Made by a program: the position numbers and the translations under genes. From Herbiconiux sp. A18JL235 (lineage in GTDB: Bacteria > Actinomycetota > Actinomycetes > Actinomycetales > Microbacteriaceae): 64,000 bases of DNA. Below the pieces are notes generated by a model that was not told the DNA's origin, did no database searches, and saw only the letters and a list, made by a program, of their open reading frames with translations. Below are positions 3,712 through 42,669 of this stretch, piece by piece. Position 1 is the stretch's first letter, and each line of letters opens with the position of its first letter. The DNA lies in NCBI RefSeq assembly GCF_040939305.1, contig NZ_CP162511.1:3100001-3164000 (forward strand). Reading direction: 5' to 3'.

Positions 3712-3745
3712 CGCCAGCGCGCGAGGTCGGTGAGGGTCGGCGGCC

Positions 3746-6177: not shown

Positions 6178-6183
6178 GCCGTC

Positions 6184-6189
6184 AGCGTA
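6184..6189 (-). promoter_or_regulatory. -10 box TACGCT, leaderless start of the acyl-CoA dehydrogenase gene
   Basis: On the minus strand TACGCT is followed by GACGGC and then the ATG at 6177. The 6-nt gap places the transcription start on the A of the start codon. There is no Shine-Dalgarno sequence. Confidence 0.5.
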
Positions 6190-6220
6190 CCCGCGCCCTC
6201 TGACAGCGGCATGGGTGGGC

Positions 6221-6793: not shown

Positions 6794-6853
6794 CGAGACT
6801 CCTTCGTCGTGTGCTGCTCGTCGTGTGATGCTCGTCGTGTCGTGCTCTCGCCG

Positions 6854-8554: not shown

Positions 8555-8560
8555 GGTGCC

Positions 8561-8591
8561 ACCCTAGCGGAGGCCTCCGACGCCCTAGTCT
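8561..8591. promoter_or_regulatory. Back-to-back leaderless promoters
   Basis: Minus strand: TAGGGT (8566-8561) stands 6 nt before the antiporter GTG at 8554. Plus strand: TAGTCT (8586-8591) stands 6 nt before the ATG at 8598. The two -10 boxes are separated by only 19 bp, so the polymerases must compete for the same DNA. No clear -35 element is seen on either side. Confidence 0.5.
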
Positions 8592-8597
8592 GATGTC

Positions 8598-9005
8598 ATG
8601 GACGACCCGATCGACGCAGTCTCGTTGATCACCGAAGTGCTCAGCTGGATCGGCGTCGTGACCGGGATCGTTCTCGTGGTGGCGGGGTTGATCCGCCGGG
8701 CCGTCTTCACCGGCTGGCAGCAGACGCTCGGCGTCGTCGTGATCGACGGCCGCGGGGAGCGGGTGTACCGCTGGCTCGGCGACGACGGGGTGCTGTACGA
8801 AGCGCCCGCGAACGACGACGAGACGCAGGTGCTCGAGCCGGGCGACGACGTCTCGGTGTACGTGAATCCGCGCGATCCGTCGGTGGGGCGCGTCGACGAC
8901 CCGTCGCATGAGGGCAGGGCGCTGCGCACCACCGGCTGGATCCTGCTCGGGCTCGGCGTCGTGGCGATCGTCGTGCAGTTCGTGCTGTTGTTCGTGGCGG
9001 GTTGA
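8598..9005 (+). CDS. DUF3592-like two-span membrane protein
   Basis: A 135-aa protein with one membrane helix at about 15-38 and another at about 112-132, enclosing a soluble beta-rich loop. The loop contains the DUF3592-like feature GDDVSVYVNPRDPSVG. Proteins of this type are widespread in actinobacteria and have no known function. The stop overlaps the start of ltrA (TTGA), so the two are probably co-translated. Confidence 0.7.
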   Translation: MDDPIDAVSLITEVLSWIGVVTGIVLVVAGLIRRAVFTGWQQTLGVVVIDGRGERVYRWLGDDGVLYEAPANDDETQVLEPGDDVSVYVNPRDPSVGRVDDPSHEGRALRTTGWILLGLGVVAIVVQFVLLFVAG

Positions 9006-10249
9006 AGCGCGTGTCGAAGCCGAGCCGCCCGCACGCCCTCTCTGGCGTGGTTCCCCTGGTACGGATGCGGGGGCGCGACGTCGATGAGAAGGAGCGCGTC
9101 TCCACCCCGCTCGAGCTGCTCTTCGACCTCACCTTCGTGGTGGCCGTCTCCTCGATCGTCACCCAACTCGCGCACGCGGTCGCCGAAGACCACGTCGCGA
9201 TGGCCGTCCCCAACTTCCTCATGGTGTTCTTCGCCATCTGGTGGGCGTGGCTGAACTTCACCTGGTTCGCCTCGGCCTACGACACCGACGACGTGCCCTA
9301 CCGCCTCTTGACGATGCTGCAGATGGGCGGCGTGCTCGTGCTGGCCGCCGGGGTGCCGAGCGCCTTCGAGAACGGCGACTACCTGCTCATCACCATCGGC
9401 TACTTCATCATGCGCATCGCACTCGTGGTGCAGTGGTTGCGGGCGGCGGCGCAAGACCCGGAGGGCCGGGCCACCGCCCTGCGCTACGCCCTCGGCATCT
9501 CGGTGGTGCAGGCGCTCTGGATCGTGAGGCTGTTCACCACCGGCGGTCTCCCCGACGGCTGGCAGATCGCGATCTTCGCGTTTCTCGCGGTGTGCGAGAT
9601 GGCGGTGCCGTTGTGGGCCGAGCGTCCGCGACAGACGAGGTGGCACCCGCATCATGTCGCCGAGCGCTACTCCCTGTTCGTCATCATCCTGCTGGGCGAG
9701 TCGGTGCTGGCGTCGAGCGTCGGGGTGCAGGGCATCGTGAGCGCGGGCGCGGGGTCGGGGCCGTTCGTGCTGATCGCCGCCTCGGGTCTCGCGCTGCTGT
9801 TCGGGTTGTGGTGGATCTACTTCCTCGAACCGGCCCACGAGGGTCTCGAGCACAACCGCTCCTGGTCGTACTTCTGGGGGTACGGGCACTACGTGGTGTT
9901 CGCCGCACTCGCCGCCGTGGGCGCGGGCATCGAAGAGAGCGTGGAGGCGTTCGGGCACGAGATCGAGGCGCCCATCCAGGTCATCGGGTGGGCGATCGCC
10001 CTCCCCGTGGCGGTGTTCCTGGTCGCCATGCAGGTGCTCTACCGGCCGCTCATCGGGCGCACGGTCATCCCGGCATGGCTGTCGCTCGGGGCAGCGGCGG
10101 TCATCCTGCTGCTGCCGCTCCTCACCGAGGCGATCGCCCTGCCGTTCGTGGTGCTCCTGATCACCCTGGTCGTGGCCGCGGTCGTCGCGGTCACCATCCT
10201 CGTGCGCCGCCCGCGCGGCGAGAACCTCCTCCCGACGCCGACGCCCTAG
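9002..10249 (+). CDS. ltrA: Low temperature requirement protein A family membrane protein
   Basis: A 415-aa protein with about 10-11 membrane segments. The LtrA signature is near the N-terminus: STPLELLFDLTFVVAV followed by a WWAWLNFTWFAS helix; HHVAERYSLFVIILLGES is further on. The family was named from a Listeria cold-growth phenotype; its transport activity is not established. The start could be TTG 9002, overlapping the upstream stop, or GTG 9011. The 3' end overlaps the convergent HTH gene by 4 bases. Confidence 0.85.
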   Translation: MKRVSKPSRPHALSGVVPLVRMRGRDVDEKERVSTPLELLFDLTFVVAVSSIVTQLAHAVAEDHVAMAVPNFLMVFFAIWWAWLNFTWFASAYDTDDVPYRLLTMLQMGGVLVLAAGVPSAFENGDYLLITIGYFIMRIALVVQWLRAAAQDPEGRATALRYALGISVVQALWIVRLFTTGGLPDGWQIAIFAFLAVCEMAVPLWAERPRQTRWHPHHVAERYSLFVIILLGESVLASSVGVQGIVSAGAGSGPFVLIAASGLALLFGLWWIYFLEPAHEGLEHNRSWSYFWGYGHYVVFAALAAVGAGIEESVEAFGHEIEAPIQVIGWAIALPVAVFLVAMQVLYRPLIGRTVIPAWLSLGAAAVILLLPLLTEAIALPFVVLLITLVVAAVVAVTILVRRPRGENLLPTPTP

Positions 10250-10458
10250 TCCTCCGGTTCGTCGACGTGGCGCAGGATGTCGCCCGGCTGGCAGCCGAGC
10301 ACCGAGCAGATGGCGTCGAGCGTCGAGAAGCGCACCGCCTTGGCCCTGCCGTTCTTCAGGATCGAGACGTTCGCCACCGTGATGCCCACGGCTGCCGCGA
10401 GGTCGCTCACCGACATCTTCTGCTTCGCCAGCTCCACGTCGAGGTCGATCACGATCAT
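10246..10458 (-). CDS. YozG-type HTH regulator (XRE/Cro family)
   Basis: A 70-aa single-domain helix-turn-helix protein: MSVSDLAAAVGITVANVSILKNG forms the HTH, then TLDAICSVLGCQPGDIL, the usual ending of this short family. It is translationally coupled (TGATG) to the DUF2975 membrane protein before it, a pairing well known from Bacillus yoaS-yozG and many actinobacteria. The regulator probably acts on the operon's own promoter, where TATCG/CGATA repeats are present at 10974-11011. Confidence 0.85.
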   Translation of the reverse strand: MIVIDLDVELAKQKMSVSDLAAAVGITVANVSILKNGRAKAVRFSTLDAICSVLGCQPGDILRHVDEPED

Positions 10459-10940
10459 CAGACCACCTCGGAGAGCTCGTCGTGCAGCTGCATCGCGGTG
10501 TGCAGCAGGTGCCGCATCACGACCACCAGCAGCGCGAGCGCTGCCGCAGCCCCGGCGATGGCGGCGGCGAGCACCGCGACCGTGGCGCCCTGCGCATCCG
10601 TCGCCGCCCCTGTGACGAGCAGGTAGATCAAGCCCGCCGCCGAGATCGCCGCCCCGACCGCGAGCGCACCGATGGCGGTGTCGACCCAGCGGTCGGAGCG
10701 CCGAGCCACCTCGAAGATGCGCGCGTCGCGCGCCAGCGAGACCAGCGCCCACACGCACACGAGCACGACCTCGATGCAGACGAGCCCGCCGACGGCAAGC
10801 ACCGTCACCACGGTGGCTGCAGGTGTGCCGACGCCGAGCATCTCCTGGGCGAGTGAGCCGCTCGTCACCTGGGCCGTGACGGCGCCGGCGAACAGCAGGG
10901 CGAGGAGGGCACGCAGGGCGCCGATGACGATGGCTGGCAT
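10458..10940 (-). CDS. DUF2975 membrane protein
   Basis: A 160-aa protein with four hydrophobic helices (about 3-25, 40-68, 88-110, 122-146). The loop after helix 2 has the DUF2975 pattern RDARIFEVARRSDRWVD, and the C-terminus ends LHDELSEVV. The function is unknown, but the family almost always precedes a small XRE regulator, as here, suggesting a membrane sensor controlling the regulator. GGGAGA 3 nt before the ATG is the ribosome site. Confidence 0.85.
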   Translation of the reverse strand: MPAIVIGALRALLALLFAGAVTAQVTSGSLAQEMLGVGTPAATVVTVLAVGGLVCIEVVLVCVWALVSLARDARIFEVARRSDRWVDTAIGALAVGAAISAAGLIYLLVTGAATDAQGATVAVLAAAIAGAAAALALLVVVMRHLLHTAMQLHDELSEVV

Positions 10941-10969
10941 GGGTCTCCCGTCGACCGATCTTCGACATG

Positions 10970-11013
10970 AATTTATCGATATTCGTGCATTTCATATCGT
11001 TTTTCGATATGTT
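10970..11013. promoter_or_regulatory. Divergent promoter with TATCG/CGATA operator repeats
   Basis: An AT-rich island holds the palindrome TATCGATA (10974-10981) and an inverted repeat CATATCG-TTTTT-CGATATG (10993-11011). TATGTT (11008-11013) could serve as the -10 box of the ferritin-like gene and AATTTA (10970-10975, TAAATT on the minus strand) as that of the DUF2975 operon, so a protein bound to the repeats would block both. The HTH protein of the operon is the obvious candidate ligand. Confidence 0.5.
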
Positions 11014-30617: not shown

Positions 30618-31943
30618 TCAGTGGAACTGCTCGGATTCGGTCGAACCCACGAGCGCGAGGGTGGCGCTCTCGGGGTTCAGGGCCGTGGCGATCCGGTCGA
30701 AGTAGCCGGTGCCCACCTCACGCTGGTGTCTCGTGGCGGTGTAGCCGTCGGCCTCGGAGGCGAATTCGGCCTCCTGCAGCTCGACGTAGGCGCTCATGTG
30801 CGTCTCGCCGTAGGCACGGGCGAGGGTGTACATGGAGTGGTTCAGGGCATGGAAGCCCGCGAGGGTGATGAACTGGAACTTGTAGCCGAGCTCCGACAGG
30901 TCGCTCTGGAAGGTGGCGATCTGCGCATCCGTCAGCTTCGACTTCCAGTTGAAGCTGGGGCTGCAGTTGTAGGCGAGCAGCTTGCCGGGGAACTCCTCGT
31001 GGACGGCGGCGGCGAACTCGCGGGCGAGCTCGAGGTCGGGCTCCGACGACTCCACCCACAGCAGGTCGGCGTAGGGGGCGTAGGCCAGGCCGCGCGAGAT
31101 GACGGTGTCGATGCCGGGGGTCGTGCCGTAGAAGCCCTCCGGGGTGCGGGTGCCGTCGAGGAACGGCTTGTCGCGGTCGTCGACATCGCTCGTGATGAGG
31201 TTCGCGGCGAGCGAGTCGGTGCGGGCGATGATGATCGTCGGCACTCCGGCCACGTCGGCGGCGAGGCGGGCCGCGTTGAGGGTGCGGATGTGCTGGCTGG
31301 TCGGGATGAGCACCTTGCCCCCCATGTGCCCGCACTTCTTCTCGCTGGCCAGCTGGTCTTCCCAGTGCACGCCCGCGGCGCCGGCCTGGATCATCGACTT
31401 CATCAGCTCGTAGGCATTCAGCGGGCCGCCGAAGCCGGCCTCCGCATCCGCGACGATGGGGGCCAGCCACTCGGTGTCGCTCTCGGCGCTGCCCGTCTCG
31501 GCGAACTCGATCTGGTCGGCGCGCAGCAGCGCGTTGTTGATGCGGCGCACCACCGCCGGCACCGAGTTGGCCGGGTAGAGGCTCTGGTCGGGGTAGGTCT
31601 GGCCGCTCAGGTTCGCGTCGGCGGCCACCTGCCACCCGGAGAGGTAGATGGCCTCGAGGCCGGCGCGCACCTGCTGCACCGCCTGGTTGCCGGTGAGGGC
31701 GCCGAGAGCCGCCACCCACTCGTCGTCGCGGTGGATGAGCTCCCAGAGCCGCTCGGCGCCGCGGCGGGCGAGCGTGCTGTCTTCGGCGACCCGTCCGCGC
31801 AGGGCCACGACGTCTTCGGCACTGTAGTCGCGCTGGATGCCGTTCCAGCGGGCGTCGGTCTTCCAGCTCGTCTCGAGCTCGGCTGCCGTCTGCGTCTGCT
31901 GGCCGGGGCGGGTGTCGTCTCCGTGGCGGGTGGTGGTGCTCAT
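30618..31943 (-). CDS. aceA: Isocitrate lyase
   Basis: A 441-aa enzyme splitting isocitrate to glyoxylate and succinate. It has the catalytic motif KKCGH with Cys204, the Mg site [12 protein letters not shown], the [10 protein letters not shown] loop and ARTDS. The length matches the class of actinobacterial Icl1. The ATG at 31943 has GGAG upstream and is preferred over an extended frame to 32000. With aceB it forms the glyoxylate shunt, allowing growth on acetyl-CoA from fatty acids or aromatics. The RamB-like regulator is divergent. Confidence 0.95.
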
Positions 31944-32039
31944 CTCGATGCTCCAATGCGGTCGAATTCTTGCTTGGGTTCGACTCTGGGGCCTGCACAA
32001 GGGTTCTTCTCCCGAAATCTCGGCAGAAATTTCCCGCTT

Positions 32040-32078
32040 CTTCTGTTTTCTCGAAGAACGGCTTCTGCGACACTTCTG
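32040..32078. promoter_or_regulatory. aceA/ramB intergenic region with phased CTTCTG repeats
   Basis: The hexamer CTTCTG occurs at 32040-32045, 32062-32067 and 32073-32078, spaced 22 and 11 bp apart (the same helix face). Between the first two is an inverted repeat TTCT-CGA-AGAA (32048-32058). This AT-richer 137-bp gap serves both aceA and the regulator. The repeats differ from the C. glutamicum RamB box, so their identity is a guess. Confidence 0.4.
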
Positions 32079-32080
32079 GA

Positions 32081-33544
32081 ATGACGACGACGTCCCTCTC
32101 CCCCGCGCACGATGGATTCATGCTCGACTCCCTCACCATCGGCCGCCGCATCCGCCAGCTGCGCACCGAGCGCGGCCTCACCCTCGACGAGCTCGGCACT
32201 GCCATCGGGCGCGCGCCCTCGCAGGTGTCGGTCGTCGAGAACGGTCGCCGCGAGCTGAAGCTCGGCGAACTGCAGCGCTTCGCCTCGGCCCTCGGGGTCG
32301 GCGTGCAGCAGCTCATGAGCGCGGAGCCGCCGAGCGAGCGGGCAGCCCTCGAGATCGCCCTCGAGCGCGCGCAGCGCGGCCCTCTGTTCGCGTCGCTCGG
32401 GCTGGCACCGCTGCCCCTCCGCAAGTCGCTGAGCGACGACACCATCCGCACCATCCTGAGCCTCCACCGTGAGCTCGAGCGGGTGCACACCGAGCGGGCG
32501 GCGACACCCGAGGAGGCGCGGCGGGCCAACACGCTGCTGCGCAAGTCGATGCGCGCCCGCCACAACTACTTCGCCGAGCTCGAGCAGGTGGCGGCGGGGC
32601 TGCATGCCGCGGTGGGGCACACCGGTGGTCCGTTGTCGCAGCGGGTCGCATCCGATCTGGCGTCGCACCTCGGGTTCACGCTGCACTACGCCGGCGACCT
32701 GCCGGGGTCGACCCGCTCGGTGACCGACCTGCGCAACGGACGCATCTACGTGCCGCTCGGGCAGAGCCCCGATGCTGACCCGCGCTCAGTGGTGCTGCAG
32801 GCGCTCGCGTCGCACGTGCTCGGGCACGCGGAGCCGCGCGACTACGGCGAGTTCCTGCAGCAGCGGGTGCAGACGAACTACCTCGCGGCGGCGCTGCTCG
32901 TACCCGAGGCGGCTGCGGTGCGCATCCTGTCGGAGGCGAAGGATGCGCGGGAGCTGTCGGTCGAAGACCTGCGCGACGCTTTCGGCGTGAGCTACGAGAC
33001 CGCGGCGCACCGGTTCACGAACCTCGCCACCCAGCACCTCGGCATCCCGGTGCACTTCTTGAAGGTTCACGAGTCGGGGTCGATCTCGAAGGCGTACGAG
33101 AACGACAGCGTGCAGTTCCCGACGGATGCGCTCGGCGCCGTCGAAGGGCAGACGGTGTGCCGGTTCTGGAGCGCGCGGCGCGTGTTCGACGTGGAGGACA
33201 GGTTCAGCCCCTACCACCAGTACACCGACAAGCCGGCGGGAACCTACTGGTGCACCTCGCGCATCCAGCCCTCCGCCCGCGGGCAGTTCTCGGTGTCGGT
33301 GGGCACGGCGTTCGCGCACGCGAAGTGGTTCCGCGGGCGCGACACCGCGCATCGCTTCGCGTCGAGCTGCCCCGACGAGTCGTGCTGCCGTCTCCCACCC
33401 GCCGGGCTCGCCTCGCGATGGGAGGGGCAGGCGCACCCCTCGGCCCGCCTCAACTCGTCACTGCACGCGGCGATGCCCACGTCGGGTTTCACGGGGGTGG
33501 ACACGACGGAGGTGTTCGAGTTCCTCGAGCGGCACGCGCCCTAG
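32081..33544 (+). CDS. RamB-like HTH regulator with degenerate ImmA/IrrE domain (ScfR type)
   Basis: A 487-aa regulator. The XRE HTH (about 18-75) has [18 protein letters not shown] and [15 protein letters not shown] helical linker follows, then a degenerate ImmA/IrrE-like domain (about 190-300) in which the HExxH zinc motif reads HVLGH. The C-terminal short-chain fatty-acyl-regulator domain (about 330-487) has the Cys cluster SSCPDESCC. Relatives include RamB of Corynebacterium, which represses aceA/aceB, and MlpR/PrpR-type regulators sensing acyl-CoA or propionate metabolism. The divergent placement from aceA supports the same role. Confidence 0.85.
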
Positions 33545-34686
33545 TGGTGCGCCTCGTACCGAACGGGCTCCGGCAGCCCCGCTTCCTCACGCACCCGGCG
33601 CGCGAAGCGTTCGATCGACTTCAGCGCCGCCACGACCTCGTCGGGTCGCACCTCGAACGGCATCGCGTGGATGGTCTCGCCCGGCACGGTGGCGAGTTCC
33701 GCGACCTGGGCGAGTTCGGCCGAGTCGGCGCTGAGTCCGATCTCGGTGAGCGTGGTGGGCAGGCCCACCCGGGTGGTGAACTCGATGAAGTCGCGGATGT
33801 CGGCGGTCGGCGCCCCTTCGAGCACCAGCTGGGTGATGGATCCGATGTTCACCTTCTGCCCGTGCGCCAGCCCGTGGGTCTGCGGTGCGGCCGTGAGTCC
33901 GTTGTGGATGGCGTGCGCCGCGGCGAGACCGCCCGACTCGAACCCGAGACCGGAGAGCAGCGTGTTCGCCTCGATCACCTTCTCCACCGCCGGCGTCACG
34001 ACGTGGTCGCGCACCGCGTCGAGCGCGGGGAGGGCGTTCTCCCACAGCACCTCCCAGCTCAGCCGCGCCAGCGCCGTGCCGGTCTCGGTCGGCAGACCGC
34101 CGGCCATCGTGTTCGAGTTCGAGCGCTGGGTGGCCCGCGCCTCGAGCCAGGTCGCCAGCGCATCGCCGACCCCGGCGGCGAGGAACGCCGCGGGCGCGTT
34201 CGCGACGAGCTGGGAGTCGACCAGCACGAGGTCGGGGTTGCGGGGGAAGAAGCGGTACTCCTCGAACGCGCCGTCCTCGGTGTAGATGACGGCGAGCGCC
34301 GAGGTGGGCGCATCCGTCGACGCCACCGAGGGCACGGTCACCCACCGGATGCCCGCGAGGAAGCCCGCCGACTTCACCGCGTCGATCGTGCTGCCGCCGC
34401 CCAAAGCGACCACCACATCCGCTCCGGCCTCCTCGATCACGGTGACGAGCCGGTCGATCTCTCCGGCGCTCGGGATGCCGTTGAACTTCTCGCGCCGCAC
34501 CGGGAGCCCGGCGGCGGTGAGCGAGACCTCGACGTCGTGACCGACGAAGCCCCACACCACGTCGTCGGCGACGAGCAGAGGGGTCGAGCCGATGGGGGCG
34601 AGGTACTCGCCGAGGCGGGTGATGGCTCCGGGGCCCTGGACGTAGCGCCCTGGGCTGATGACGGTGCGGATCTTGGGGTTCGACAT
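33541..34686 (-). CDS. Iron-containing alcohol dehydrogenase, glycerol-dehydrogenase (GldA)-like
   Basis: A 381-aa protein. It has the NAD site VVALGGGSTIDAVKSAGF near residue 95, VPSVASTDAPTSALAVIY, metal ligands Asp in GVGDALATWLEA, and His in AHAIHNGL and THGLAHGQKV. These are the GldA/sn-glycerol-1-P dehydrogenase signatures. It oxidises glycerol or another vicinal diol. It is the last gene of the unit with the zinc alcohol dehydrogenase, DUF59 protein and amidohydrolase, 71 nt downstream of its neighbour with its own AGGAG. It overlaps the convergent RamB-like gene by 4 bases. Confidence 0.85.
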   Translation of the reverse strand: MSNPKIRTVISPGRYVQGPGAITRLGEYLAPIGSTPLLVADDVVWGFVGHDVEVSLTAAGLPVRREKFNGIPSAGEIDRLVTVIEEAGADVVVALGGGSTIDAVKSAGFLAGIRWVTVPSVASTDAPTSALAVIYTEDGAFEEYRFFPRNPDLVLVDSQLVANAPAAFLAAGVGDALATWLEARATQRSNSNTMAGGLPTETGTALARLSWEVLWENALPALDAVRDHVVTPAVEKVIEANTLLSGLGFESGGLAAAHAIHNGLTAAPQTHGLAHGQKVNIGSITQLVLEGAPTADIRDFIEFTTRVGLPTTLTEIGLSADSAELAQVAELATVPGETIHAMPFEVRPDEVVAALKSIERFARRVREEAGLPEPVRYEAHH

Positions 34687-34757
34687 GGGTGTCTCCTGAC
34701 GTCGTCGTCGTGTCGCGTTTCGGGATGGAAGGGGCAGGTCGGGCGCTCGGCGCCTCT

Positions 34758-35798
34758 CTAGGGAACGAGGATCGCGCGGCCCCGCACGCGCCCCGCGTCG
34801 AGATCGTCGATCGCCGTCTGGAAGTCGTCGAGCGCATACGTCGCCGTGTGCAGCGTGACGAGCCCTTTGGCCGCGAGCACCATGAGCTCGGTGAGGTCGT
34901 TGTAGCTGCCCACGAGGTTGCCGATGAAGTTGATCTCGTTCGAGATGATGTCGATGGTGGGGATGTCGATGTTCTCGCCGTAGCCCACCACGTAGAAGTC
35001 GCCGGCCTGCCGCAGCATCTGCACACCCTCTGCGGTCGAACCGCCCTCCCCCACGAAATCGACGACCACCTCTGCGCCGACCCCGTCGGTGAGCTCGAGC
35101 ACCCGCGTGACGTGCGAGCCGTCGGCAGCCGCCACCACGGTGTGGTCGGCCCCGAGCGAGGCCGCCAGCTCGAGCGCCGCCGGGTTGCGGTCGACGACGA
35201 TGAGCTCCGAGGCAGTGAGAGCCTTCAGCACCTGGATGCCGATGTGCCCGAGCCCCCCGGCGCCGATGATCACGCACCGGTCGGCGGGCCCGAGCCTGCG
35301 CGCCGCCTTGGCCGCAGCGTGGTACGCGGTGAGCCCGGCGTCGGCGAGCGCCGCCACGTCGGCGGGTTCGAGAGAGTCGGCGATGCGCACGACGCTCCGT
35401 GCGCTCGTGCGCAGGAACTCGGCATACCCGCCGTGGGTGTTGATGCCCGGGAACTCGCTCTGCGTGCAGTGCACGTCGTCGCCGAGGCGGCAGGCCCGGC
35501 ACAGCCCGCAGGTGATGAGCGGATGAACGATTACCTTGTCGCCGACCGCCACGTTCGTGACGGCGCTGCCGATCGCATCCACCCACCCGGCGTTCTCGTG
35601 CCCGATCGTGTAGGGCAGCGCCACACCCGACTTCTCCTCCCACTGACCCTCGAGGATGTGCAGGTCGGTGCGGCACACCCCGGCGCCGCCGATCCGCACG
35701 ATCACGTCGAAGGGCCCCGAGACCTCGGGCTTGTCGATCTCGGTCAGCTCGAGGTTCTGGTGGTACCCGACCACCTGGACTGCCTTCATGGTGCTCAT
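34758..35798 (-). CDS. Zinc-dependent alcohol dehydrogenase (MDR family)
   Basis: A 346-aa medium-chain dehydrogenase. The catalytic zinc site is Cys in GVCRTDLHI and GHENAG; the structural zinc loop CGLCRACRLGDDVHC has four Cys. The Rossmann motif GAGGLGHIGIQ is near residue 178. It oxidises short alcohols with NAD. It is closest in design to the alcohol dehydrogenases of propane/acetone monooxygenase clusters, with which its two upstream neighbours (DUF59 protein, amidohydrolase) also occur. It starts by ATGA overlap with the DUF59 gene. Confidence 0.87.
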   Translation of the reverse strand: MSTMKAVQVVGYHQNLELTEIDKPEVSGPFDVIVRIGGAGVCRTDLHILEGQWEEKSGVALPYTIGHENAGWVDAIGSAVTNVAVGDKVIVHPLITCGLCRACRLGDDVHCTQSEFPGINTHGGYAEFLRTSARSVVRIADSLEPADVAALADAGLTAYHAAAKAARRLGPADRCVIIGAGGLGHIGIQVLKALTASELIVVDRNPAALELAASLGADHTVVAAADGSHVTRVLELTDGVGAEVVVDFVGEGGSTAEGVQMLRQAGDFYVVGYGENIDIPTIDIISNEINFIGNLVGSYNDLTELMVLAAKGLVTLHTATYALDDFQTAIDDLDAGRVRGRAILVP

Positions 35799-36577
35799 GC
35801 GACGCTCTTTCGTGTGGTGCGGAGGAGGGAGGTGACGGGGAAGAAGTTCTCGTCGGCCCGCGGTGCCTGGTCGGCTTCCGACCCCGGGTAGCGGGTGGCC
35901 AGGAGGCCCCGGCAGAAGTGGGCGTTCCCGTCGATCGAGATGCGCGTCGACCGCGCCCGGCGCAGCGCCAGCGCAGCGGACGCCGGGGGGTGCGGCACCC
36001 CGTGGTCGTCGACGAGCACGGGCGAGTTCGGCAGCGCGTCGAGGCCGATCGCCGCGCGGCGGCGCAGCAGGGCGGCCGTGGCGGGGTCGTCGGGCAGATC
36101 GCCGAGCACGACGGATGCGACACCCGTTTCGTCGAGATCGCTCCGCGAGCGCAGCAGGGCGGTGAGCGCCCGCTCCATCGCTGCGGTGTGGGCCTTGCGC
36201 TGGAAGGTGGCTCGCAGCTCCTCGAGATCGTCCTCGGCCTCGTGCCGGAAGGTGCCGCGATACCCGGCGTCGGCCGCGAGCCCGGCATTGATGATGCCCG
36301 AGTCGTGGTGGTCGTCGAGCTCCACGACCACGCTGCCGATCTCCGGGAGCGCGGTCAGCGCATCCTTCGCATCCGACGCCATCAGGTAGGCGAAGTTGGG
36401 CGCGCAGAACGACGTCGGGAGGCGCAGGTGCACCTCCACCCCGAGCTCGGTGAAGCGCACCGACCGCACGAAGCCGAGATCGGTGATCGGTTCATCGAGC
36501 TCCGGGTCGATCACGGCGTCGAGGGCGCGCATCACGTCGCTCTCGTTCAGCACGAGGAGCGCTTCTGCGGTGCCCAT
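35795..36577 (-). CDS. DUF59/MIP18-family metal-sulfur cluster assembly protein
   Basis: A 260-aa protein. A DUF59 domain (about 8-110) has the family pattern VIDPELDEPITDLGFVRSV, with a Cys in the SFCAPNF loop. The C-terminal 150 residues are an extension known from the equivalent protein in propane-monooxygenase loci of Rhodococcus and Mycobacterium. The likely role is metal or Fe/S-cofactor maturation of a partner enzyme. It overlaps both neighbours (TGATG with the amidohydrolase, ATGA with the alcohol dehydrogenase). Confidence 0.8.
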   Translation of the reverse strand: MGTAEALLVLNESDVMRALDAVIDPELDEPITDLGFVRSVRFTELGVEVHLRLPTSFCAPNFAYLMASDAKDALTALPEIGSVVVELDDHHDSGIINAGLAADAGYRGTFRHEAEDDLEELRATFQRKAHTAAMERALTALLRSRSDLDETGVASVVLGDLPDDPATAALLRRRAAIGLDALPNSPVLVDDHGVPHPPASAALALRRARSTRISIDGNAHFCRGLLATRYPGSEADQAPRADENFFPVTSLLRTTRKSVA

Positions 36578-37620
36578 CACACGGCCGCCAGGTCGGCGCG
36601 CTCGGGCTGACGCGGTCCGGTCTCGGTCTCGTCGGCATCCGGGATCTGCAGCTCGGCCGGCACCGGGATGTCGTACATCTTCGCCGCGTTGAGGCCGAGG
36701 ATCTTGCGCTTCTGGTCCATCGTGATGGGCGCGTACTCGGTCATGTCCTCCGGGATCTGGAAGTCGACGAAGGCCTCCACCAGCCACTTCGGCGTCCACA
36801 GCGCGTAGTCGCTCGAGAACTGGATGCGGTCCTCCCCGATCCAGTAGATGAGCTCGCCGATGATCTGGGCGAAGTAGCGCGGGCGGGTGTGGATGAACGG
36901 CATCGCCACCGCGAGCCCGCCGTGCACGTTGGGTTCCTGCGTCGCGATCCAGCAGAAGTCCTCCAGGCGCGGGAGGCCGACGTGCTCGACCACGAAGTTC
37001 AGGTCGGTGAAGTCGGTGGCGGCGTGGTCGATGTCGGCGACGTCGAAGGCGTCGCGGTCGAGCGGGCGGATGGTCGGGCCCTTGTGCACGTGGATGTTCG
37101 TGATGCCGAGTTCACGGCACACCTCGAAGTAGCGGTAGGCCCATGGGTCGTCGAGCTTCCAGCCGCGCGAGTCGCCGTGCCATTCGGCCGTGTAGAGCTT
37201 CACGCCCTTGAGGCCGAAGCGCTCGGCGTCGGCGCGCAGCTGATCGAGGCCGGCCTCGCCGTTGCGCGGGTCGAAGTTGTGGTTGTAGGTGAGCTTGTCG
37301 GGGTGCGCCTGGGTGAGGGCCCACGCCTCCTCGGTCTGGCCGAAGCCGTTCACGTAGAACTCGCCGAGGGCGGCCGGCTGGAAGATGGCGTGGTCGACGA
37401 TGTCGTCGACGAACACGTCGCGCATGAAGCGCTCCCCGCCCTGGTAGAGGTACTCCTCGTAGCTCCACTTCTCCGACTCGGGTGAGAGGTTCGCGTGGTA
37501 GTCGTAGAAGCAGTCGATGAACTGCTTGCCGTGGATGTTGCGCTGATTCTCGGGCCGCGCATCCCACAACGCCACGTGGGCGTCGACGATGAAGAAGTTC
37601 TCGCCGTCTTTGCTGTACAT
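36577..37620 (-). CDS. Amidohydrolase 2 family protein, monooxygenase-locus type
   Basis: A 347-aa TIM-barrel amidohydrolase. The N-terminal strand has DAHVALWD in place of the canonical HxH, LYTAEWHGDSRGW and HVHKGPTIRP carry the next metal-type residues, and SSDYALWTPKW the final Asp. The loss of one His of the first motif (DAHV) should be noted. Proteins of this precise type are encoded next to soluble diiron monooxygenases (prm/mim), where they have no defined substrate. It is the first gene of the unit; AAAGGAG precedes the ATG. Confidence 0.8.
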   Translation of the reverse strand: MYSKDGENFFIVDAHVALWDARPENQRNIHGKQFIDCFYDYHANLSPESEKWSYEEYLYQGGERFMRDVFVDDIVDHAIFQPAALGEFYVNGFGQTEEAWALTQAHPDKLTYNHNFDPRNGEAGLDQLRADAERFGLKGVKLYTAEWHGDSRGWKLDDPWAYRYFEVCRELGITNIHVHKGPTIRPLDRDAFDVADIDHAATDFTDLNFVVEHVGLPRLEDFCWIATQEPNVHGGLAVAMPFIHTRPRYFAQIIGELIYWIGEDRIQFSSDYALWTPKWLVEAFVDFQIPEDMTEYAPITMDQKRKILGLNAAKMYDIPVPAELQIPDADETETGPRQPERADLAAV

Positions 37621-37705
37621 GTCTGCTCCTTTGCCGCATGTCGCGGGATCTCGATCCCTGCCGACGACGGTAGACGGCGAGTGGAGGCAGGTGGCCTGTG
37701 GCGTA

Positions 37706-37756
37706 TCTCAATGTGAGACGGGCACAGGAGACACCGAGCCGGGGCCGATTTAGACT
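37706..37756. promoter_or_regulatory. Divergent control region with TCTCA-ATG-TGAGA inverted repeat
   Basis: A perfect inverted repeat TCTCA-N3-TGAGA (37706-37718) lies between the amidohydrolase and the activator gene. TAGACT (37751-37756) is a suitable -10 box for the activator, whose ATG is 30 nt downstream with GAAGG as ribosome site. The repeat sits at a distance suited to regulating both directions. Confidence 0.5.
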
Positions 37757-37785
37757 TGCCGCGACGGTCGACTGCGAAGGTGCTG

Positions 37786-39255
37786 ATGAACGCTCGCGAA
37801 CTGCCCTCCCGGGCTGAGGTGCACACCGCCCCCGTGGCGGCGCTCCCCGCGCGCCTGCTCGCCTCCTGGCAGCGCAGTGAGAGCTACGGCGTTCCCCTCG
37901 ACGAGGTGCAGCCCGTGTTCTCGGGCACCTGGGACGACGAGTCGCTGTTCTCCGAGTGCGGGCGCGAAGTGCTCGCCGAGCTGCACAGCACCCTCGCCTC
38001 GGAGCCCGTGGGCCTCATGCTCACCGACGCCGACGGGCTCGTGCTCAACCGGCTGAGCGGCGACCAGCAGCTCCTTCAGGCGCTCGACCGGGTGCACCTC
38101 GCGCCCGGCTTCTCGTATTCCGAGCGCGAGGCGGGCACCAACGGTCTCGGGCTGGCGCTCGCCGACAGGGTGCCCTCGCTCGTGCGGGCCGACGACCACT
38201 ACTCGCGGAGCCTCTGCGGCTACACCTGCGCTGCGGCACCCATCTTCGATCCGTTGACCGGTCGGCTGGAGGGCGCGGTGAACTTCACCACCTGGTCGGA
38301 TGCGCGCTCCGACCTGTTGCTCGCGCTCGCCCAGACCGCCGCCACCTCGACCGCGAACCTCATGCTCGCGCGATCGCAGGGGCACCGGCCCCCGCGACGC
38401 ACCGCGCGGGGCCAGGTGTTCCGCATCGAGGCGCTGCGGAACGCGCCAGGCGGCCCCGGCCCGCTCGAGCTCTCGGAGGCGTGGACGGAGGCGCTCGCCC
38501 AGACGGTCACGGCGCTCCGCGCGGGCCGCGTGGTGGCGGCGGTCGGCGAACGGGGCACCGGGCGGGCCACGCTCATCGCGCAGGCGCAGCGGGTCGTCGA
38601 TCCGCGCATCCGTCTGCTCTCGGTGCGCGCCCCCGAACCGCACGACGTCGACTCCTGGCTGGCGTTCTGGACCCCGGAACTCACCCACCCCGACACCGCG
38701 TTCGTCATCTGCGACACCGACGACCTCCCCGCCGCGGCGGCCGAACGCCTGACCGCGCTGGTGCTCGACGCCCGTCGTTCGGTGGGTGGCTCCTACGGCC
38801 TGACGGCCGAGCGCTTCGACGACCTCCCGCATCCGCTGTCGGGCCTCGTCGACACCGTCGTGCAGGTGCCACCGCTGCGCGAGCGCACCGCCGACATCCT
38901 GCCGCTCGCCGGTCACCTCGCCGCGCGGGCGCGGGGGCGCGGGGTCGAGATCACCCCCTCGGCCGCGCGAGTGCTCACCGACTACGCCTGGCCGGGCAAC
39001 GTGGCGGAGCTCGCCACGGCGATGAAGGACGCGGCGGTGCGGACCGACGTGGTCGAGCCGCGCCACCTCCCGCCCGAGCTGCTGTCCCGGGCCGAGCACC
39101 TCCCCCGCATCAAGGCCTTCGAGCGCGACGAGATGGTGCGGGTGCTCACGAGGCCCGGCATCTCGATCGACGACGCCGCGACCGAGCTGGGCATGAGTCG
39201 CGCCACCGTCTACCGCAAGCTCGCCGTCTACGGCATCCGGTTGCCCAAAGACTGA
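37786..39255 (+). CDS. GAF-domain Fis-type activator, AcoR/MimR-like
   Basis: A 489-aa regulator. An N-terminal GAF sensor (about 60-190) has SYSEREAGTNGLGLAL and SLCGYTCAAAPIFDP. A degenerate AAA+ domain follows (about 215-400): the Walker A reads GERGTGRAT with Arg for Lys, and no GAFTGA sigma-54 loop is present. The C-terminal Fis HTH has ISIDDAATELGMSRATVYRKL. Actinobacteria lack sigma-54, so it must act otherwise, as does MimR, which controls binuclear monooxygenase clusters in mycobacteria. It is divergent from the amidohydrolase unit. Confidence 0.85.
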   Translation: MNARELPSRAEVHTAPVAALPARLLASWQRSESYGVPLDEVQPVFSGTWDDESLFSECGREVLAELHSTLASEPVGLMLTDADGLVLNRLSGDQQLLQALDRVHLAPGFSYSEREAGTNGLGLALADRVPSLVRADDHYSRSLCGYTCAAAPIFDPLTGRLEGAVNFTTWSDARSDLLLALAQTAATSTANLMLARSQGHRPPRRTARGQVFRIEALRNAPGGPGPLELSEAWTEALAQTVTALRAGRVVAAVGERGTGRATLIAQAQRVVDPRIRLLSVRAPEPHDVDSWLAFWTPELTHPDTAFVICDTDDLPAAAAERLTALVLDARRSVGGSYGLTAERFDDLPHPLSGLVDTVVQVPPLRERTADILPLAGHLAARARGRGVEITPSAARVLTDYAWPGNVAELATAMKDAAVRTDVVEPRHLPPELLSRAEHLPRIKAFERDEMVRVLTRPGISIDDAATELGMSRATVYRKLAVYGIRLPKD

Positions 39256-39381: not shown

Positions 39382-42300
39382 ATGTCACGCACGCCTTCAC
39401 GGATGCTCGCACTCGCACTCGGAACGGCGCTCGCCGCGTCGAGCGTCACAGCTCTGACCGTCGCAGCGGCGGCCCCGGCGCTCGCAGACGACACCGCCGC
39501 ATCCTGTCTCATCGTGCCGAGCACCGCCGGCGCCGCCCAGCCTGTGGTCGGCGACGACGAGCTCGGCGACGAGGGCTCCGCCATCTTCGGCTTCATCACC
39601 TCCATCGCCTCGAACGCCCTCGCCGACGGCGCCACCGACGGCGCGGGCTGGCTGCTCAACCTCATGCTCGGCAACAACGACGACAACCAGGACGACGCCC
39701 AGCTGCTCGCCGATCAAGCAGCCCAGCAGCAGCAGTTGAACTCGATCCAGGCGTCGGTGAACGCGCTCGCGAACCAGCTCACGAACGCCGAGTACGCCAT
39801 TCAGAGCCAGCTCACCCAGACGAACTACGACCTGCAGGTCGCCGACGAGAACAACAACATCGCGAACATCCAGAGCAGCGTGCAGGCGGTGTGCGAGCTG
39901 GCAGCCGACGCGTCGACCAACAACGTGAGCAACCCCTATCTCCCCGACTCCACCGATATCGACACCATCACGAACCTTCGCGACTACGGCAAGACCTACC
40001 TCGCCGACCTGTCGAACGCGCTGCTCGGGTCGGAGGGCGCTGACGGCATCATCGCCGTCTACCGTCAGGCGTGGTGGGCGAACGCGACCGTGTCGGCATC
40101 CGAACCCCCGTCGCAGGCCACCTGGACGAGCGAGTACCTCGCGTCGATGCACGCCCTGCTCGACTACTACGTGAACCTCTCCGGTCAGCTGTTCAACGCC
40201 TACGCCGAGGCCGTTCACTGGGAGAACGCCGCCGCGCCCGGGGTGCAGCAGCTGGCGCAGGACGACCCTCAGAAGATCGCCGAGTTCTACGCCCAGCTGC
40301 AGCTGGACATCCCCGCCTGGACCGAGGTCGCCACGAGCAACCTGCCCACCATCCCCGACGGCACCGCCGTCGACTTCCGCTCGGGCGACGGGGGCACGTA
40401 CGACCTCTGGACGACCGACGCCCTGCAGTTCCCCGACACCAATGCCGACCAGTACTGCGAGAACCTCGTCGCGCTCTGCGTGTACAACGTCTGGCAGGCC
40501 GCAGCAACACCGTCGGTCGTCGCAGCGACGACAGTCGTGCCGAGCGTCATCCCCGTTCCCGACTTCCTGCCCACGAACCCTCTCGGGCTCGGCGGTTGGC
40601 GCGTTCCGACGGCGACCGACTGGGAAGGCTGGGTGGCGCCCACCTACGCCGCCGGCACCCAGAACCTGCAGGGCCTCGACCCCAATGACGGGGTGGCGGC
40701 GTGGGCGAGCGCAGAGAACATCCCTGTTCTGGAGGCGCAGAGCTTCGCGGTGCCCGGCGGATCGATCTCCACCATCCCCCCGGTCATCGTCGACAACGCC
40801 CTGAACGGCGTGTTCTCCTTCAACGACCCGTCGTCGGCGTCTCCGACGCTGATGCTTCCCGCGGCCGGCGGCTGGGTCGGGTACGCCGGGCAGCTGGCGC
40901 TCGTGACCTCGGTCACGGCGACCGCACCGCCCCTTCCTCCGGTGACGCCGACCGCACCCGGCGCGACCGGCGCGACCGGCGCATCCGATTCGACCGCCGA
41001 GCCTGCGGGCCCCCAGGCGGCGGCTCCCGCCCGGCTCGATCTCGGCGACGCGACGGGTGCGACGCCCACAACGGTGAAGGATGCGGGTCTCACCACGCAG
41101 AGCACCACAGGCTCGCTCTACTCGCAGACGGTGTTCTCCTCGACCAGCGCCTGCTCCGCGAACGCCTTCACCCAGCCGGTGGGTGCGAACGCCGTGACCG
41201 TCATCGTCTCGGGCGGCAACGGCGGTGCCGGCATCGGTGACAGCGGAACGAACCCGGGGGCCGCGGGCGGACAGGTCACCGCGACCATCCCGCTCGCACC
41301 GGGCGCCACGATCTACGCCCAGGTCGGCGGCAACGGCGGCGACGCGTCGCAGCAACCGATCGATCCGAGCATCGCTCCCTACCAGTACGTGCCGGGAGGC
41401 GGCGGATTCGGCGGGGGTGCCGCCGGTGGCGGCAACGTCATCCCGGTCGAGGGGACCGGCGGCGGAGGCGGCGGGTTCTCCGGTGTGGCAGCCGACTCCG
41501 GATGCAGTCAGTGGCTCACCGTCGCCGGCGGCGGGGGCGGGGCCGGCGGCCTCGCCGAGCACAACGGCAACTCCGGCGGCGGAAACGGCTGCGTGGTGTC
41601 GGGGTGCGCGGGCCAGACCCCGACGCAGGTCGACGGCGACACCGGAGCAGGCACGGCGGGTACCTTCCTGAGCGCGGGCTCCGCCGGTGAGCACGACGGG
41701 AAGTACGCCAGCGGCGGCTCGAACGGCGGCTGGGGCGTCGGCGGCACCGGAGGCACCGGCAGCAACGGCAGCTCGAACCCGTTCCACGACTGGGGCGGCG
41801 GTTCAGGCGGAGGCGGCGGTGGCGGCTGGGGCGGAGGCGGCGGAGGCGGCGGTTCCACCGGCGACTACGCGGGAGCCGGTGGCGGCGGAGGCGGCAGCTA
41901 CCTGGCCGCCGGTATCGCGACGGCTACGTTCACCACCACCACGGCCGGACCGTCGGTGAGCCTCGAGCCGGTGCTCGTGTCGGAGTACCAGATCACGCAG
42001 ACCGACGGCCATGTCTGGGTCGCGCCCGACGCCCTGCAGTACGGTCAGCCGATCACCTCGCAGCAGGGCGTGGCGTACTCCGCCCAGCAGGACTGGTCGC
42101 TCCTGCCCGCCACCTCGACGAGCTTCCAGCTGGTGGCACCGGGCGCGGGCCTGTGCGCGACCTCGAACGGCTCGACCCTCGTCGGCGACCAGTGCGCCGA
42201 CCCGGCGAGCTCGTCGTCACCCCTGCAGACGTGGACCTTCGAGCCGCAGGCGGGAGCGCTCGCGGTCGTGGCCGGCGACGGCACCGCAGCCCTCGGAGGG

Positions 42301-42669
42301 CAGGGCTCGCCCGCCGGCATCACGATGGGCCAGTGGCAGTCGGAGAACTGGTCGACCTGGGACCTCACGCTGTCCCCGATCTCGATGTGGGCGGCGCCGG
42401 GGTCGGCGAGCCCACTCGTCGATCTCGACTCGCCCGAACCGCCGGGGCCGGGCGAGCCGGGCACTCCGGGCACGGGCGAGCCGGGTTCGGGCGGGCCGGG
42501 GTCGGGCGACGGGTCGGCGCCGGGCGCCGCGCCTACCCCCGGTGAGCTCGCCGCGACCGGCGCATCCGTCGCCCCTGTGGGCATCGGCGCGCTGATCGCC
42601 GTGCTCGCCCTGCTGCTCGGCGGCGCGCTGTTCGTCCGCGCTCGGCGCCGCCGCGGGCCTGCCCGCTAG
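39382..42669 (+). CDS. Large Gly-rich surface protein with LAATG sorting signal
   Basis: A 1095-aa secreted protein. It has a signal peptide (about 1-36), a helical, Gln/Asn-rich N-terminal domain with heptad-like DQAAQQQQLNSIQASVNALA (about 110-170), and a mixed domain to about 520. An extremely Gly-rich region (about 590-870) is interrupted by Cys and Trp residues. A ricin-lectin-like domain (about 890-1010, LQTWTFEPQ type) follows, then a Pro/Gly spacer. LAATG at 1056-1060, a membrane helix and RARRRR end the protein. LAxTG is the recognition motif of class E sortases, so cell-wall anchoring is likely. GGGGAG precedes the start. No sortase gene is in the window. Confidence 0.8.
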   Translation: MSRTPSRMLALALGTALAASSVTALTVAAAAPALADDTAASCLIVPSTAGAAQPVVGDDELGDEGSAIFGFITSIASNALADGATDGAGWLLNLMLGNNDDNQDDAQLLADQAAQQQQLNSIQASVNALANQLTNAEYAIQSQLTQTNYDLQVADENNNIANIQSSVQAVCELAADASTNNVSNPYLPDSTDIDTITNLRDYGKTYLADLSNALLGSEGADGIIAVYRQAWWANATVSASEPPSQATWTSEYLASMHALLDYYVNLSGQLFNAYAEAVHWENAAAPGVQQLAQDDPQKIAEFYAQLQLDIPAWTEVATSNLPTIPDGTAVDFRSGDGGTYDLWTTDALQFPDTNADQYCENLVALCVYNVWQAAATPSVVAATTVVPSVIPVPDFLPTNPLGLGGWRVPTATDWEGWVAPTYAAGTQNLQGLDPNDGVAAWASAENIPVLEAQSFAVPGGSISTIPPVIVDNALNGVFSFNDPSSASPTLMLPAAGGWVGYAGQLALVTSVTATAPPLPPVTPTAPGATGATGASDSTAEPAGPQAAAPARLDLGDATGATPTTVKDAGLTTQSTTGSLYSQTVFSSTSACSANAFTQPVGANAVTVIVSGGNGGAGIGDSGTNPGAAGGQVTATIPLAPGATIYAQVGGNGGDASQQPIDPSIAPYQYVPGGGGFGGGAAGGGNVIPVEGTGGGGGGFSGVAADSGCSQWLTVAGGGGGAGGLAEHNGNSGGGNGCVVSGCAGQTPTQVDGDTGAGTAGTFLSAGSAGEHDGKYASGGSNGGWGVGGTGGTGSNGSSNPFHDWGGGSGGGGGGGWGGGGGGGGSTGDYAGAGGGGGGSYLAAGIATATFTTTTAGPSVSLEPVLVSEYQITQTDGHVWVAPDALQYGQPITSQQGVAYSAQQDWSLLPATSTSFQLVAPGAGLCATSNGSTLVGDQCADPASSSSPLQTWTFEPQAGALAVVAGDGTAALGGQGSPAGITMGQWQSENWSTWDLTLSPISMWAAPGSASPLVDLDSPEPPGPGEPGTPGTGEPGSGGPGSGDGSAPGAAPTPGELAATGASVAPVGIGALIAVLALLLGGALFVRARRRRGPAR

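What the first reader, a model, noticed from the sequence alone, without database searches (positions are those of the whole stretch)
33541..39255. Propane-monooxygenase accessory locus without a monooxygenase
The gene set amidohydrolase (PrmE-like), DUF59 protein with a C-terminal extension, zinc alcohol dehydrogenase and divergent MimR/AcoR-like activator is the known accessory set of binuclear propane/acetone monooxygenase clusters. Here none of the four monooxygenase components nor the GroEL-like chaperone is present, and a GldA-like dehydrogenase is added. The tight gene overlaps (TGATG, ATGA) indicate a working operon rather than debris. The locus may serve another oxidised substrate (for example a diol), or a monooxygenase encoded elsewhere. 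The amidohydrolase has lost one His of its first metal motif.
Basis: partly seen in the sequence, partly recalled or inferred. Interest (0 to 1): 0.7.

Follow-up and report, generated by a model that had tools for sequence, protein, structure and literature searches.

The report
Propane-oxidation helper operon without its oxygenase
Genes known as helpers of a bacterial propane- and acetone-oxidising enzyme form a complete, regulated operon in many soil actinobacteria that lack that enzyme, so the helpers probably run a small oxidation pathway of their own.

Summary
In detail: amidohydrolase (AmdH), DUF59 protein, zinc dehydrogenase (ADH) and GldA form one operon beside a divergent activator. 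The near-complete genome has no PF02332 (diiron hydroxylase) match and one chaperonin, 50% identical to the oxygenase-linked kind.

It is not a local loss. In 394 class-wide genomes, 32 AmdH matches fall into 16 oxygenase-free clusters ("type B"), 7 oxygenase clusters and 9 other contexts. Of 80 named loci, 78 show no oxygenase in the DNA held. In the trees type B sits beside prm/mim-cluster genes.

New here: a dyad, GTCTCA-N3-TGAGAC, precedes AmdH in 92 of 92 distinct type B regions, usually with a -10 box at fixed distance. It also precedes oxygenase operons (7 of 7; then 8 of 8 unseen) and a stand-alone GldA in Arthrobacter liuii with the same spacing. Oxygenase, trio and GldA thus look like exchangeable parts of one regulon.

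The lost histidine is general in type B, but a Kribbella-like group lost it while keeping the oxygenase.

Best reading: a free-standing secondary-alcohol/hydroxyketone module, GldA being an alternative entry enzyme. The substrate is inferred.

The parts
36577..37620 (-). AmdH: PF04909 amidohydrolase-fold protein, 347 aa, first metal motif DAHVA
   Evidence: predicted (beta/alpha)8 fold, mean pLDDT 90.5; fold neighbours are PF04909 decarboxylases and C-C hydrolases
35795..36577 (-). DUF59 (FeS_assembly_P) protein, 260 aa, with helical C-terminal extension; start overlaps AmdH stop (TGATG)
   Evidence: model mean pLDDT 88.7; N-terminal part matches DUF59/CIAO2B structures at E 1e-3 or weaker
34758..35798 (-). 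Zinc-dependent medium-chain alcohol dehydrogenase, 346 aa; start overlaps DUF59 stop (ATGA)
33541..34686 (-). GldA-like glycerol/diol dehydrogenase, 381 aa, 71 nt after ADH
   Evidence: (NF006941 498.9 bits, cut-off 336)
37756..39255 (+). Divergent activator: GAF domain, reduced AAA+ region, Fis-type HTH; likely start ATG 37786 (489 aa)
   Evidence: no PF00158 match; no GAFTGA in 26 of 26 aligned rows
37705..37719 (-). Operator dyad GTCTCACATTGAGAT (11 of 12 to GTCTCA-N3-TGAGAC), 84 nt upstream of AmdH
   Evidence: only site in the genome within one mismatch of GTCTCANANTGAGAC
37667..37672 (-). Predicted -10 box TACCGT, 47 nt from the start of the dyad (family mode 48)
   Evidence: window position read

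Best explanation
The locus is a free-standing version of the enzyme module that follows the oxygenase in prm/mim (propane/acetone monooxygenase) clusters, under the same kind of activator and operator. SHOWN by sequence: the AmdH-DUF59-ADH trio with a divergent activator is conserved without an oxygenase across many actinobacterial families; type B genes are close kin of prm/mim-cluster genes; type B operons, prm/mim oxygenase operons and one stand-alone GldA gene share the dyad GTCTCA-N3-TGAGAC. INFERRED mechanism: an alcohol or ketone ligand binds the activator's GAF domain; the activator binds the dyad, which is centred about 52 nt upstream of the predicted start of transcription, and recruits ordinary sigma-70-type polymerase, since the genome has no RpoN match and the protein lacks GAFTGA. 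The ADH oxidises a small secondary alcohol or alpha-hydroxyketone (2-propanol, acetol, acetoin). AmdH, with a metal site that does not need the second His of HxH, then acts on the carbonyl product, perhaps by C-C cleavage or hydration like its fold neighbours. DUF59 serves the metal site of AmdH rather than the oxygenase, because it accompanies AmdH whether or not an oxygenase is present. Oxygenase-bearing strains make the hydroxyketone from acetone with O2; Herbiconiux and its like take it from a diol with GldA, or import the alcohol.
For: Conservation: 16 of 32 AmdH matches in 394 class genomes are type B; of 80 named loci the divergent activator is seen in 78, DUF59 in 79, ADH in 78, an oxygenase in 2. 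No PF02332 in 16 of 20 type B genomes. Kinship: type B plus the L070-L072 oxygenase-cluster rows form one group with 97/100, 100/100 and 99/96 support in the AmdH, DUF59 and ADH trees. Operator: 92 of 92 distinct type B regions at 10/12 or better, 71 of them 12/12, against 0.5 of 97 expected from shuffles; 88 exact sites in 2.2 Mb against 0 for six control patterns, 78 of the 88 between activator and AmdH; upstream of the oxygenase in 7 of 7 loci with that promoter in view, and in 8 of 8 fetched afterwards. Split regulon: G513 has an oxygenase operon without the trio and a separate type B operon, both with the dyad. GldA: in A. liuii (L155) a GldA 84% identical to the window's stands 4.6 kb from the trio with an exact dyad and a TANNNT at +48, as in type B promoters. 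[quoted passage not shown]
Against: No substrate, activity or expression datum exists for any type B operon in what I saw. ADH and AmdH chemistry are guesses from fold and pathway. The best PDB match of the ADH is an Aeropyrum alcohol dehydrogenase (1h2b, 326 bits; organism recalled), well above the Rhodococcus secondary-alcohol enzyme ADH-A (2xaa, 184 bits). GldA is strong in only 5 of 80 named loci, so it cannot be the general entry enzyme. Other neighbours vary: ABM protein in 33 of 80, an AceE-like ThDP protein of about 800 aa in 10, DUF1097 in 8. Two of 80 type B loci, and G513, do sit with an oxygenase, so in some genomes the trio may still serve it. Type C clusters share the trio but show no dyad at 11 or 12 of 12 (0 of 6 loci). 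The -10 spacing of type B is not that of the oxygenase promoters. Only PF02332 oxygenases were excluded; P450s, copper and flavin oxygenases were not searched.
Confidence: 0.6

Rival explanations
1. Remnant: an ancestor had a full prm/mim cluster, lost oxygenase and chaperonin, and the rest persists with little function or is decaying.
For: Type B is nested beside oxygenase-cluster genes. G654 carries a cluster with reductase and beta subunit but no alpha-subunit match. G386 has a type B copy with a shortened AmdH and no DUF59 or ADH match beside it.
Against: Type B is intact, overlapping and conserved in many genera; AmdH of type B is 78-97% identical to the window's across families; operator and -10 box are kept. 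Decay does not keep these.
Confidence: 0.07
2. The trio still serves an oxygenase encoded elsewhere, in this genome one of another family.
For: In G513, L094 and L102 a trio lies apart from, or beside, an oxygenase operon that has none of its own in the DNA held. PF02332 is present in 4 of 20 type B genomes.
Against: 16 of 20 type B genomes, G000 included, have no PF02332 match. The dyad occurs once in G000, so no second operon of this genome carries it within one mismatch of the searched pattern. No dedicated chaperonin.
Confidence: 0.15
3. DUF59 and AmdH are maturation or protection factors (metal delivery, removal of toxic carbonyls) of general use, and only ADH or GldA is catabolic.
For: DUF59 proteins of the Suf/CIA kind work in Fe-S assembly (family knowledge; fold match to CIAO2B and other DUF59 structures). 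AmdH tolerates H, A or G at the second His, as a non-catalytic protein might.
Against: AmdH keeps D13, H15, K141, H177, H179, H213 and D271 in 37 of 37 aligned sequences down to 38% identity, which suggests an active site. The Mim amidohydrolase reaches 3.2% of the proteome (PMC7176365, passage), high for an accessory factor.
Confidence: 0.15
4. AmdH is itself an O2-using 'amidohydrolase-related oxygenase' of the AibH2/PtmU3/SfbO kind and replaces the lost diiron enzyme.
Against: AibH2's other ligands are H211, E265, D337 and H340. At the matching strands, placed by me and not by a residue alignment, AmdH has H177/H179, H213 and D271, with L274 where H340 would be. No Rieske protein or reductase was seen in the operon. 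Nearer fold neighbours are hydrolases and decarboxylases.
Confidence: 0.03

Closest known systems
prm/mim propane/acetone monooxygenase clusters (SDIMO group 5; Rhodococcus, Mycobacterium, Gordonia, Actinomycetospora)
   Same: Amidohydrolase, DUF59 protein, ADH, often an ABM-domain protein, and a divergent Fis-family activator, as described for strain BCP1 and relatives (PMC4428276, passages); same dyad upstream of the oxygenase operon.
   Different: No oxygenase subunits, reductase, coupling protein or MimG chaperonin; activator mostly some tens of residues shorter, lacking a stretch between the GAF and AAA+ parts; GldA added; -10 box at another distance from the dyad.
DhaR/AcoR-type activators (MimR among them by the literature name)
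   Same: GAF, AAA+ lid and Fis HTH; best NCBIfam match DhaR, 115 bits against a cut-off of 551.
   Different: No PF00158 match, no GAFTGA, no RpoN match in the genome: must work with another sigma factor.
PF04909 decarboxylases and C-C hydrolases (LigW, gamma-resorcylate decarboxylase, LigY, ACMSD) and uncharacterised BB4693 (3irs)
   Different: Sequence identity 11-20% in the aligned parts; second His of HxH replaced by Ala.
Glycerol/1,2-propanediol dehydrogenase GldA
   Same: NF006941 above cut-off (498.9 against 336); best PDB match a glycerol dehydrogenase (8goa, 360 bits).
   Different: Below the propanediol/glycerol equivalog cut-off (416 of 700).

Membership tests
prm/mim propane/acetone monooxygenase cluster | PF02332 hydroxylase subunits in cluster or genome | tested here: not met
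   0 matches in G000; 9 of 33 genomes ring in the same search, 5 of 5 with only an oxygenase-type cluster
prm/mim propane/acetone monooxygenase cluster | Reductase and coupling protein beside the trio | tested here: not met
   Neither ORF cluster occurs in the 20 kb of L085; not searched genome-wide
prm/mim propane/acetone monooxygenase cluster | Dedicated MimG-type chaperonin | tested here: not met
   One chaperonin match, 50% identical, about 0.24 Mb away
prm/mim propane/acetone monooxygenase cluster | AmdH, DUF59 and ADH of the same subfamilies | tested here: met
   Trees; identity to the L070-L072 copies 72-74%, 62-65% and 76-77%
prm/mim propane/acetone monooxygenase cluster | Operator shared with prm/mim operons | tested here: met
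   Window site 11/12; oxygenase operons 7 of 7 and 8 of 8. Binding not tested; that the dyad defines the family is my finding, not a published criterion
Sigma-54 enhancer-binding proteins | PF00158 core with GAFTGA, and RpoN in the genome | tested here: not met
   No PF00158 at E 0.001; no GAFTGA in 26 of 26 rows; no Sigma54_DBD match while 4 of 14 control genomes ring
PF04909 amidohydrolase family | Pfam gathering score | tested here: met
   164 bits, cut-off 26.4
PF04909 amidohydrolase family | HxH at strand 1 | tested here: not met
   HVA in the window. The pattern as a usual family feature is recalled; it is not what the Pfam score rests on
Amidohydrolase-related dinuclear oxygenases (AibH2, PtmU3, SfbO) | Six ligands D, H, H, E, D, H (AibH2 numbering D25, H27, H211, E265, D337, H340) | tested here: inconclusive
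   D13, H15, H177/H179 and D271 could fit; H213 and L274 stand where E265 and H340 would be, but no residue alignment to AibH2 could be made
GldA glycerol dehydrogenase | NCBIfam subfamily score | tested here: met
   NF006941, 498.9 bits, cut-off 336

The most novel reading that the evidence does not exclude
The 'accessory' genes of propane/acetone monooxygenase clusters are an independent, undescribed pathway for small hydroxyketones or diols: ADH makes a dicarbonyl, AmdH (a remodelled metal site with a dedicated DUF59 metallochaperone) cleaves or hydrates it, and the entry enzyme, diiron oxygenase or GldA, is an exchangeable part plugged in under one operator. On this view the oxygenase is the accessory.
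Probability: 0.35. Interest if true: 0.75.

Novelty: new variant of a known kind. Interest (0 to 1): 0.55.

Why it matters
The roles of the amidohydrolase and the DUF59 protein in prm/mim clusters are, as far as I saw, not established, and they are readily taken for support of the oxygenase. Genomes that keep both without the oxygenase separate the two ideas and give a clean place to find their function: one four-gene operon with a single predicted operator in the genome, in soil actinobacteria. The dyad also gives a sequence tag with which further members of the regulon, such as the GldA of A. liuii, can be found.

Tried and rejected
Own idea that the His-to-Ala change marks absence of the oxygenase: it held at first (20 of 20 type B rows and 80 of 80 named loci, sets that overlap; 7 of 7 oxygenase-cluster copies HxH) but failed in the order-wide sample: 15 of 23 oxygenase-flanked copies are HxA and 8 HxH. 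In the motif-masked tree the fewest-changes reading is two losses, on branches with SH-aLRT 94 and 86, neither starred.

In-frame TGA codons reported in some AmdH matches suggested selenocysteine; translation of the aligned part showed no internal stop in L168, L170-L173 or L182, so I take them to lie past the end of the reading frame.

Isocitrate lyase and a RamB-like regulator beside the operon suggested a C2 product, but of 114 loci searched only the window's own has them.

PDB sequence search for AmdH gave only 3irs at E below 0.001. The C-terminal extension of DUF59 found no structure match of its own, which does not show a new fold.

Extra pattern hits in G555 and G192 that I opened lie beside a protein kinase, peptidases and a mannosyltransferase, and were judged chance; G192:C17, G554:C3 and G555:C1:1889065 were not opened.

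Papers: searches (listings) showed no description of an oxygenase-free trio. PMC4428276 reports conserved palindromes and a putative CRP site at the prmA promoter, their letters in a figure not held (passages), so the dyad at prmA may already have been seen there.

The recount changed 97 promoter regions to 92 distinct ones, and 7 held-out type B loci to 4 truly unseen ones (L190, L191, L194, L196; 4 of 4 carry the dyad at 11 or 12 of 12); the other 3 are DNA already used. It also turned up the A. liuii GldA site.
Full report
WHAT IS THERE. The minus strand holds AmdH (36577-37620), DUF59 (35795-36577), ADH (34758-35798) and GldA (33541-34686). AmdH/DUF59 and DUF59/ADH overlap by TGATG and ATGA; GldA follows ADH after 71 nt. 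The activator runs the other way from 37756 or, more likely, from the ATG at 37786. Families: PF04909; PF01883 plus about 170 residues; zinc ADH; glycerol-dehydrogenase subfamily NF006941; GAF, AAA+ lid and Fis HTH. Several of the closest DUF59 relatives bear the name Herbiconiux, so the window is probably from that genus.

NO OXYGENASE. PF02332 has no match in the 4.32-Mb genome. rang in no control genome and proves little alone; the family rang in 9 of 33 genomes, including all 5 whose only AmdH lies in an oxygenase cluster. Of the 20 type B genomes in that search 16 had no match; the others were G470 (a distant diiron enzyme, 24% to the prm-type alpha subunit, without the dyad), G654, G513 and G386. 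One chaperonin match is present, against three in each of G513, G433 and G570. Other kinds of oxygenase were not searched.

A CONSERVED ARRANGEMENT. In 299 Microbacteriaceae genomes 6 had a strong, near full-length DUF59 match, the window's included. In 394 class genomes 30 had AmdH at E 1e-60 or better, in 32 places. From stretches of up to 20 kb I sorted them into B (16: activator next to AmdH in the opposite direction, no oxygenase ORF clusters; trio complete in 15, while the sixteenth, in G386, is shortened and without DUF59 or ADH), A (7: with oxygenase components; the G654 copy has reductase and beta subunit but no alpha match), C (6: ADH-AmdH-DUF59, in 4 of them with a FdhF/YdeP-like oxidoreductase) and D (3: AmdH relatives, 39-40% identical, no DUF59). 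The named collection gave the best 80 of 506 matches, from Herbiconiux, Agreia, Cryobacterium, Arthrobacter, Nocardioides, Geodermatophilus, Modestobacter, Rhodococcus, Mycolicibacterium, Kribbella and others: divergent activator in 78, DUF59 in 79, ADH in 78, oxygenase in 2 (L094, L102), ABM protein downstream in 33, strong GldA in 5; 64 of the 80 have 8 kb or more on both sides of AmdH. As these are the best matches to a type B query they overstate the share of type B.

KINSHIP. In the careful trees type B with the oxygenase-cluster rows L070-L072 forms one group (support 97/100 for AmdH, 100/100 for DUF59, 99/96 for ADH). Type B alone is one group with weaker support (92/90, 92/79, 74/86).

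THE METAL MOTIF. Second His of HxH: Ala in 20 of 20 type B rows and in 80 of 80 named loci (the sets overlap), His in 7 of 7 A and 6 of 6 C rows, Gly in 3 of 3 D rows. In 245 genomes of the order of G672, 30 loci were returned out of 73 matches listed: of 23 with oxygenase genes beside AmdH 15 have Ala and 8 His; 7 type B have Ala. The 15 form one group inside the oxygenase-cluster rows (SH-aLRT 86), apart from type B (SH-aLRT 94). That group is in family f49, genus g219, which I take for Kribbella because L192 of that genus pairs with Kribbella sandramycini in the tree and shares DNA with L127, Kribbella turkmenica. D13, H15, K141, H177, H179, H213 and D271 are invariant in 37 sequences. So the second His is dispensable; a mononuclear site is the simplest reading.

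THE OPERATOR. A dyad search of 97 activator-AmdH regions found GTCTCA-N3-TGAGAC. All 97 have a site with 10 or more of 12 letters; shuffles give 0.5. Five regions are the same DNA twice, leaving 92 distinct: 71 at 12, 15 at 11, 6 at 10. The window site, 37705-37719, scores 11 and is the only one in the genome within one mismatch of GTCTCANANTGAGAC. In 114 loci (2.2 Mb) there are 88 exact sites and none for six control patterns; 78 lie between activator and AmdH, 7 upstream of oxygenase operons, and 3 elsewhere: L080, downstream of an activator; L081, in front of the ADH-AmdH-DUF59 part of an oxygenase cluster; and L155. Upstream of the oxygenase alpha gene the site is present (11 or 12 of 12) in 7 of 7 loci in which that stretch is in view (L070, L071, L072, L080, L081, L094, L218; L218 was fetched because of the site) and in 8 of 8 fetched later for the purpose (L221-L223, L225-L229; L224 stops short; in L225 the site overlaps the aligned start of the activator). 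Unseen type B loci: 4 of 4. Types C and D: none at 11 or 12 of 12 in 6 of 6 and 2 of 2 loci scanned. Aligned on the dyad, type B promoters show TANNNT at +48 to +53 (T 0.76, A 0.80, T 0.77); the window has TACCGT at +47. None of 17 oxygenase-side sites has TANNNT there; several show a different common stretch about +36 to +46.

SPLIT AND EXCHANGED PARTS. G513 has one AmdH match, in a type B cluster (L069), and elsewhere an oxygenase operon with chaperonin, an Nramp transporter and ABM but no trio; both carry the dyad. In A. liuii L155 a GldA 84% identical to the window's starts near 17536, 4.6 kb past ADH, with GTCTCATTTTGAGAC at 17429 and TAGTCT at +48, the type B spacing. It scores as a glycerol dehydrogenase (488 bits). 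It is one case, but it makes GldA a likely true member of the regulon.

MECHANISM. Proposed in Best explanation. The published Mim pathway (acetone to acetol to methylglyoxal, the latter step given to the cluster's ADH) is itself a proposal from proteomics (PMC7176365, passages). GldA-type enzymes make hydroxyketones from vicinal diols (family knowledge), so oxygenase and GldA could both feed the trio with acetol. AmdH resembles PF04909 decarboxylases and C-C hydrolases in predicted fold, which shows no function. That DUF59 serves AmdH is inferred from company: DUF59 lies beside AmdH in all 7 A loci, in 19 of 20 type B loci and in 5 of 6 C loci (the sixth ends at its contig edge), and in 0 of 3 D loci.

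VERDICT. A real, conserved, regulated variant of a known kind of gene cluster, whose function is open and now testable.

Noticed in passing
L066 (G654:C1:386000-405900), 3573-10973: An oxygenase-type cluster with reductase, beta subunit, trio and chaperonin but no alpha-subunit match; the genome's single PF02332 match is the beta subunit. A complete type B cluster lies next to it.
   Followed up: partly
L155 17429-18687 (Arthrobacter liuii): Stand-alone GldA with an exact operator and the type B -10 spacing, 4.6 kb from a type B trio.
   Followed up: yes
L218 1367-2812 (G513): An Nramp-type metal transporter inside an oxygenase operon that lacks the trio.
   Followed up: no
L119 13945-16350, L138 13263-15698, L063 12904-15306: AceE-like ThDP enzyme of about 800 aa near type B trios in 10 of 80 named loci, far below the aceE cut-off (231 of 860 bits for the L119 copy); a relative of the L063 copy lies near an oxygenase cluster in L070.
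   Followed up: partly
L076-L079: Type C: ADH-AmdH-DUF59 with a FdhF/YdeP-like molybdopterin oxidoreductase (identified in L076, same ORF cluster in the other three), no dyad, no oxygenase ORF clusters.
   Followed up: partly
L083, L084, L087 (genomes of about 1.3 Mb): Type D: AmdH relatives at 39-40% with HTG at the metal motif and no DUF59 match nearby, in very small genomes.
   Followed up: no
L073 (G386:C1:2657500-2677400): A shortened type B AmdH with activator but no DUF59 or ADH match; the same genome has a full oxygenase cluster.
   Followed up: no
window 30618-33544: Isocitrate lyase and a RamB-like regulator (names from my reading of the translations) directly beside the operon; not found in the other 113 loci searched.
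   Followed up: yes
window 39382-42669: A 1095-aa apparently secreted, glycine-rich protein with a C-terminal membrane-anchor-like tail next to the activator (reading of the sequence only).
   Followed up: no
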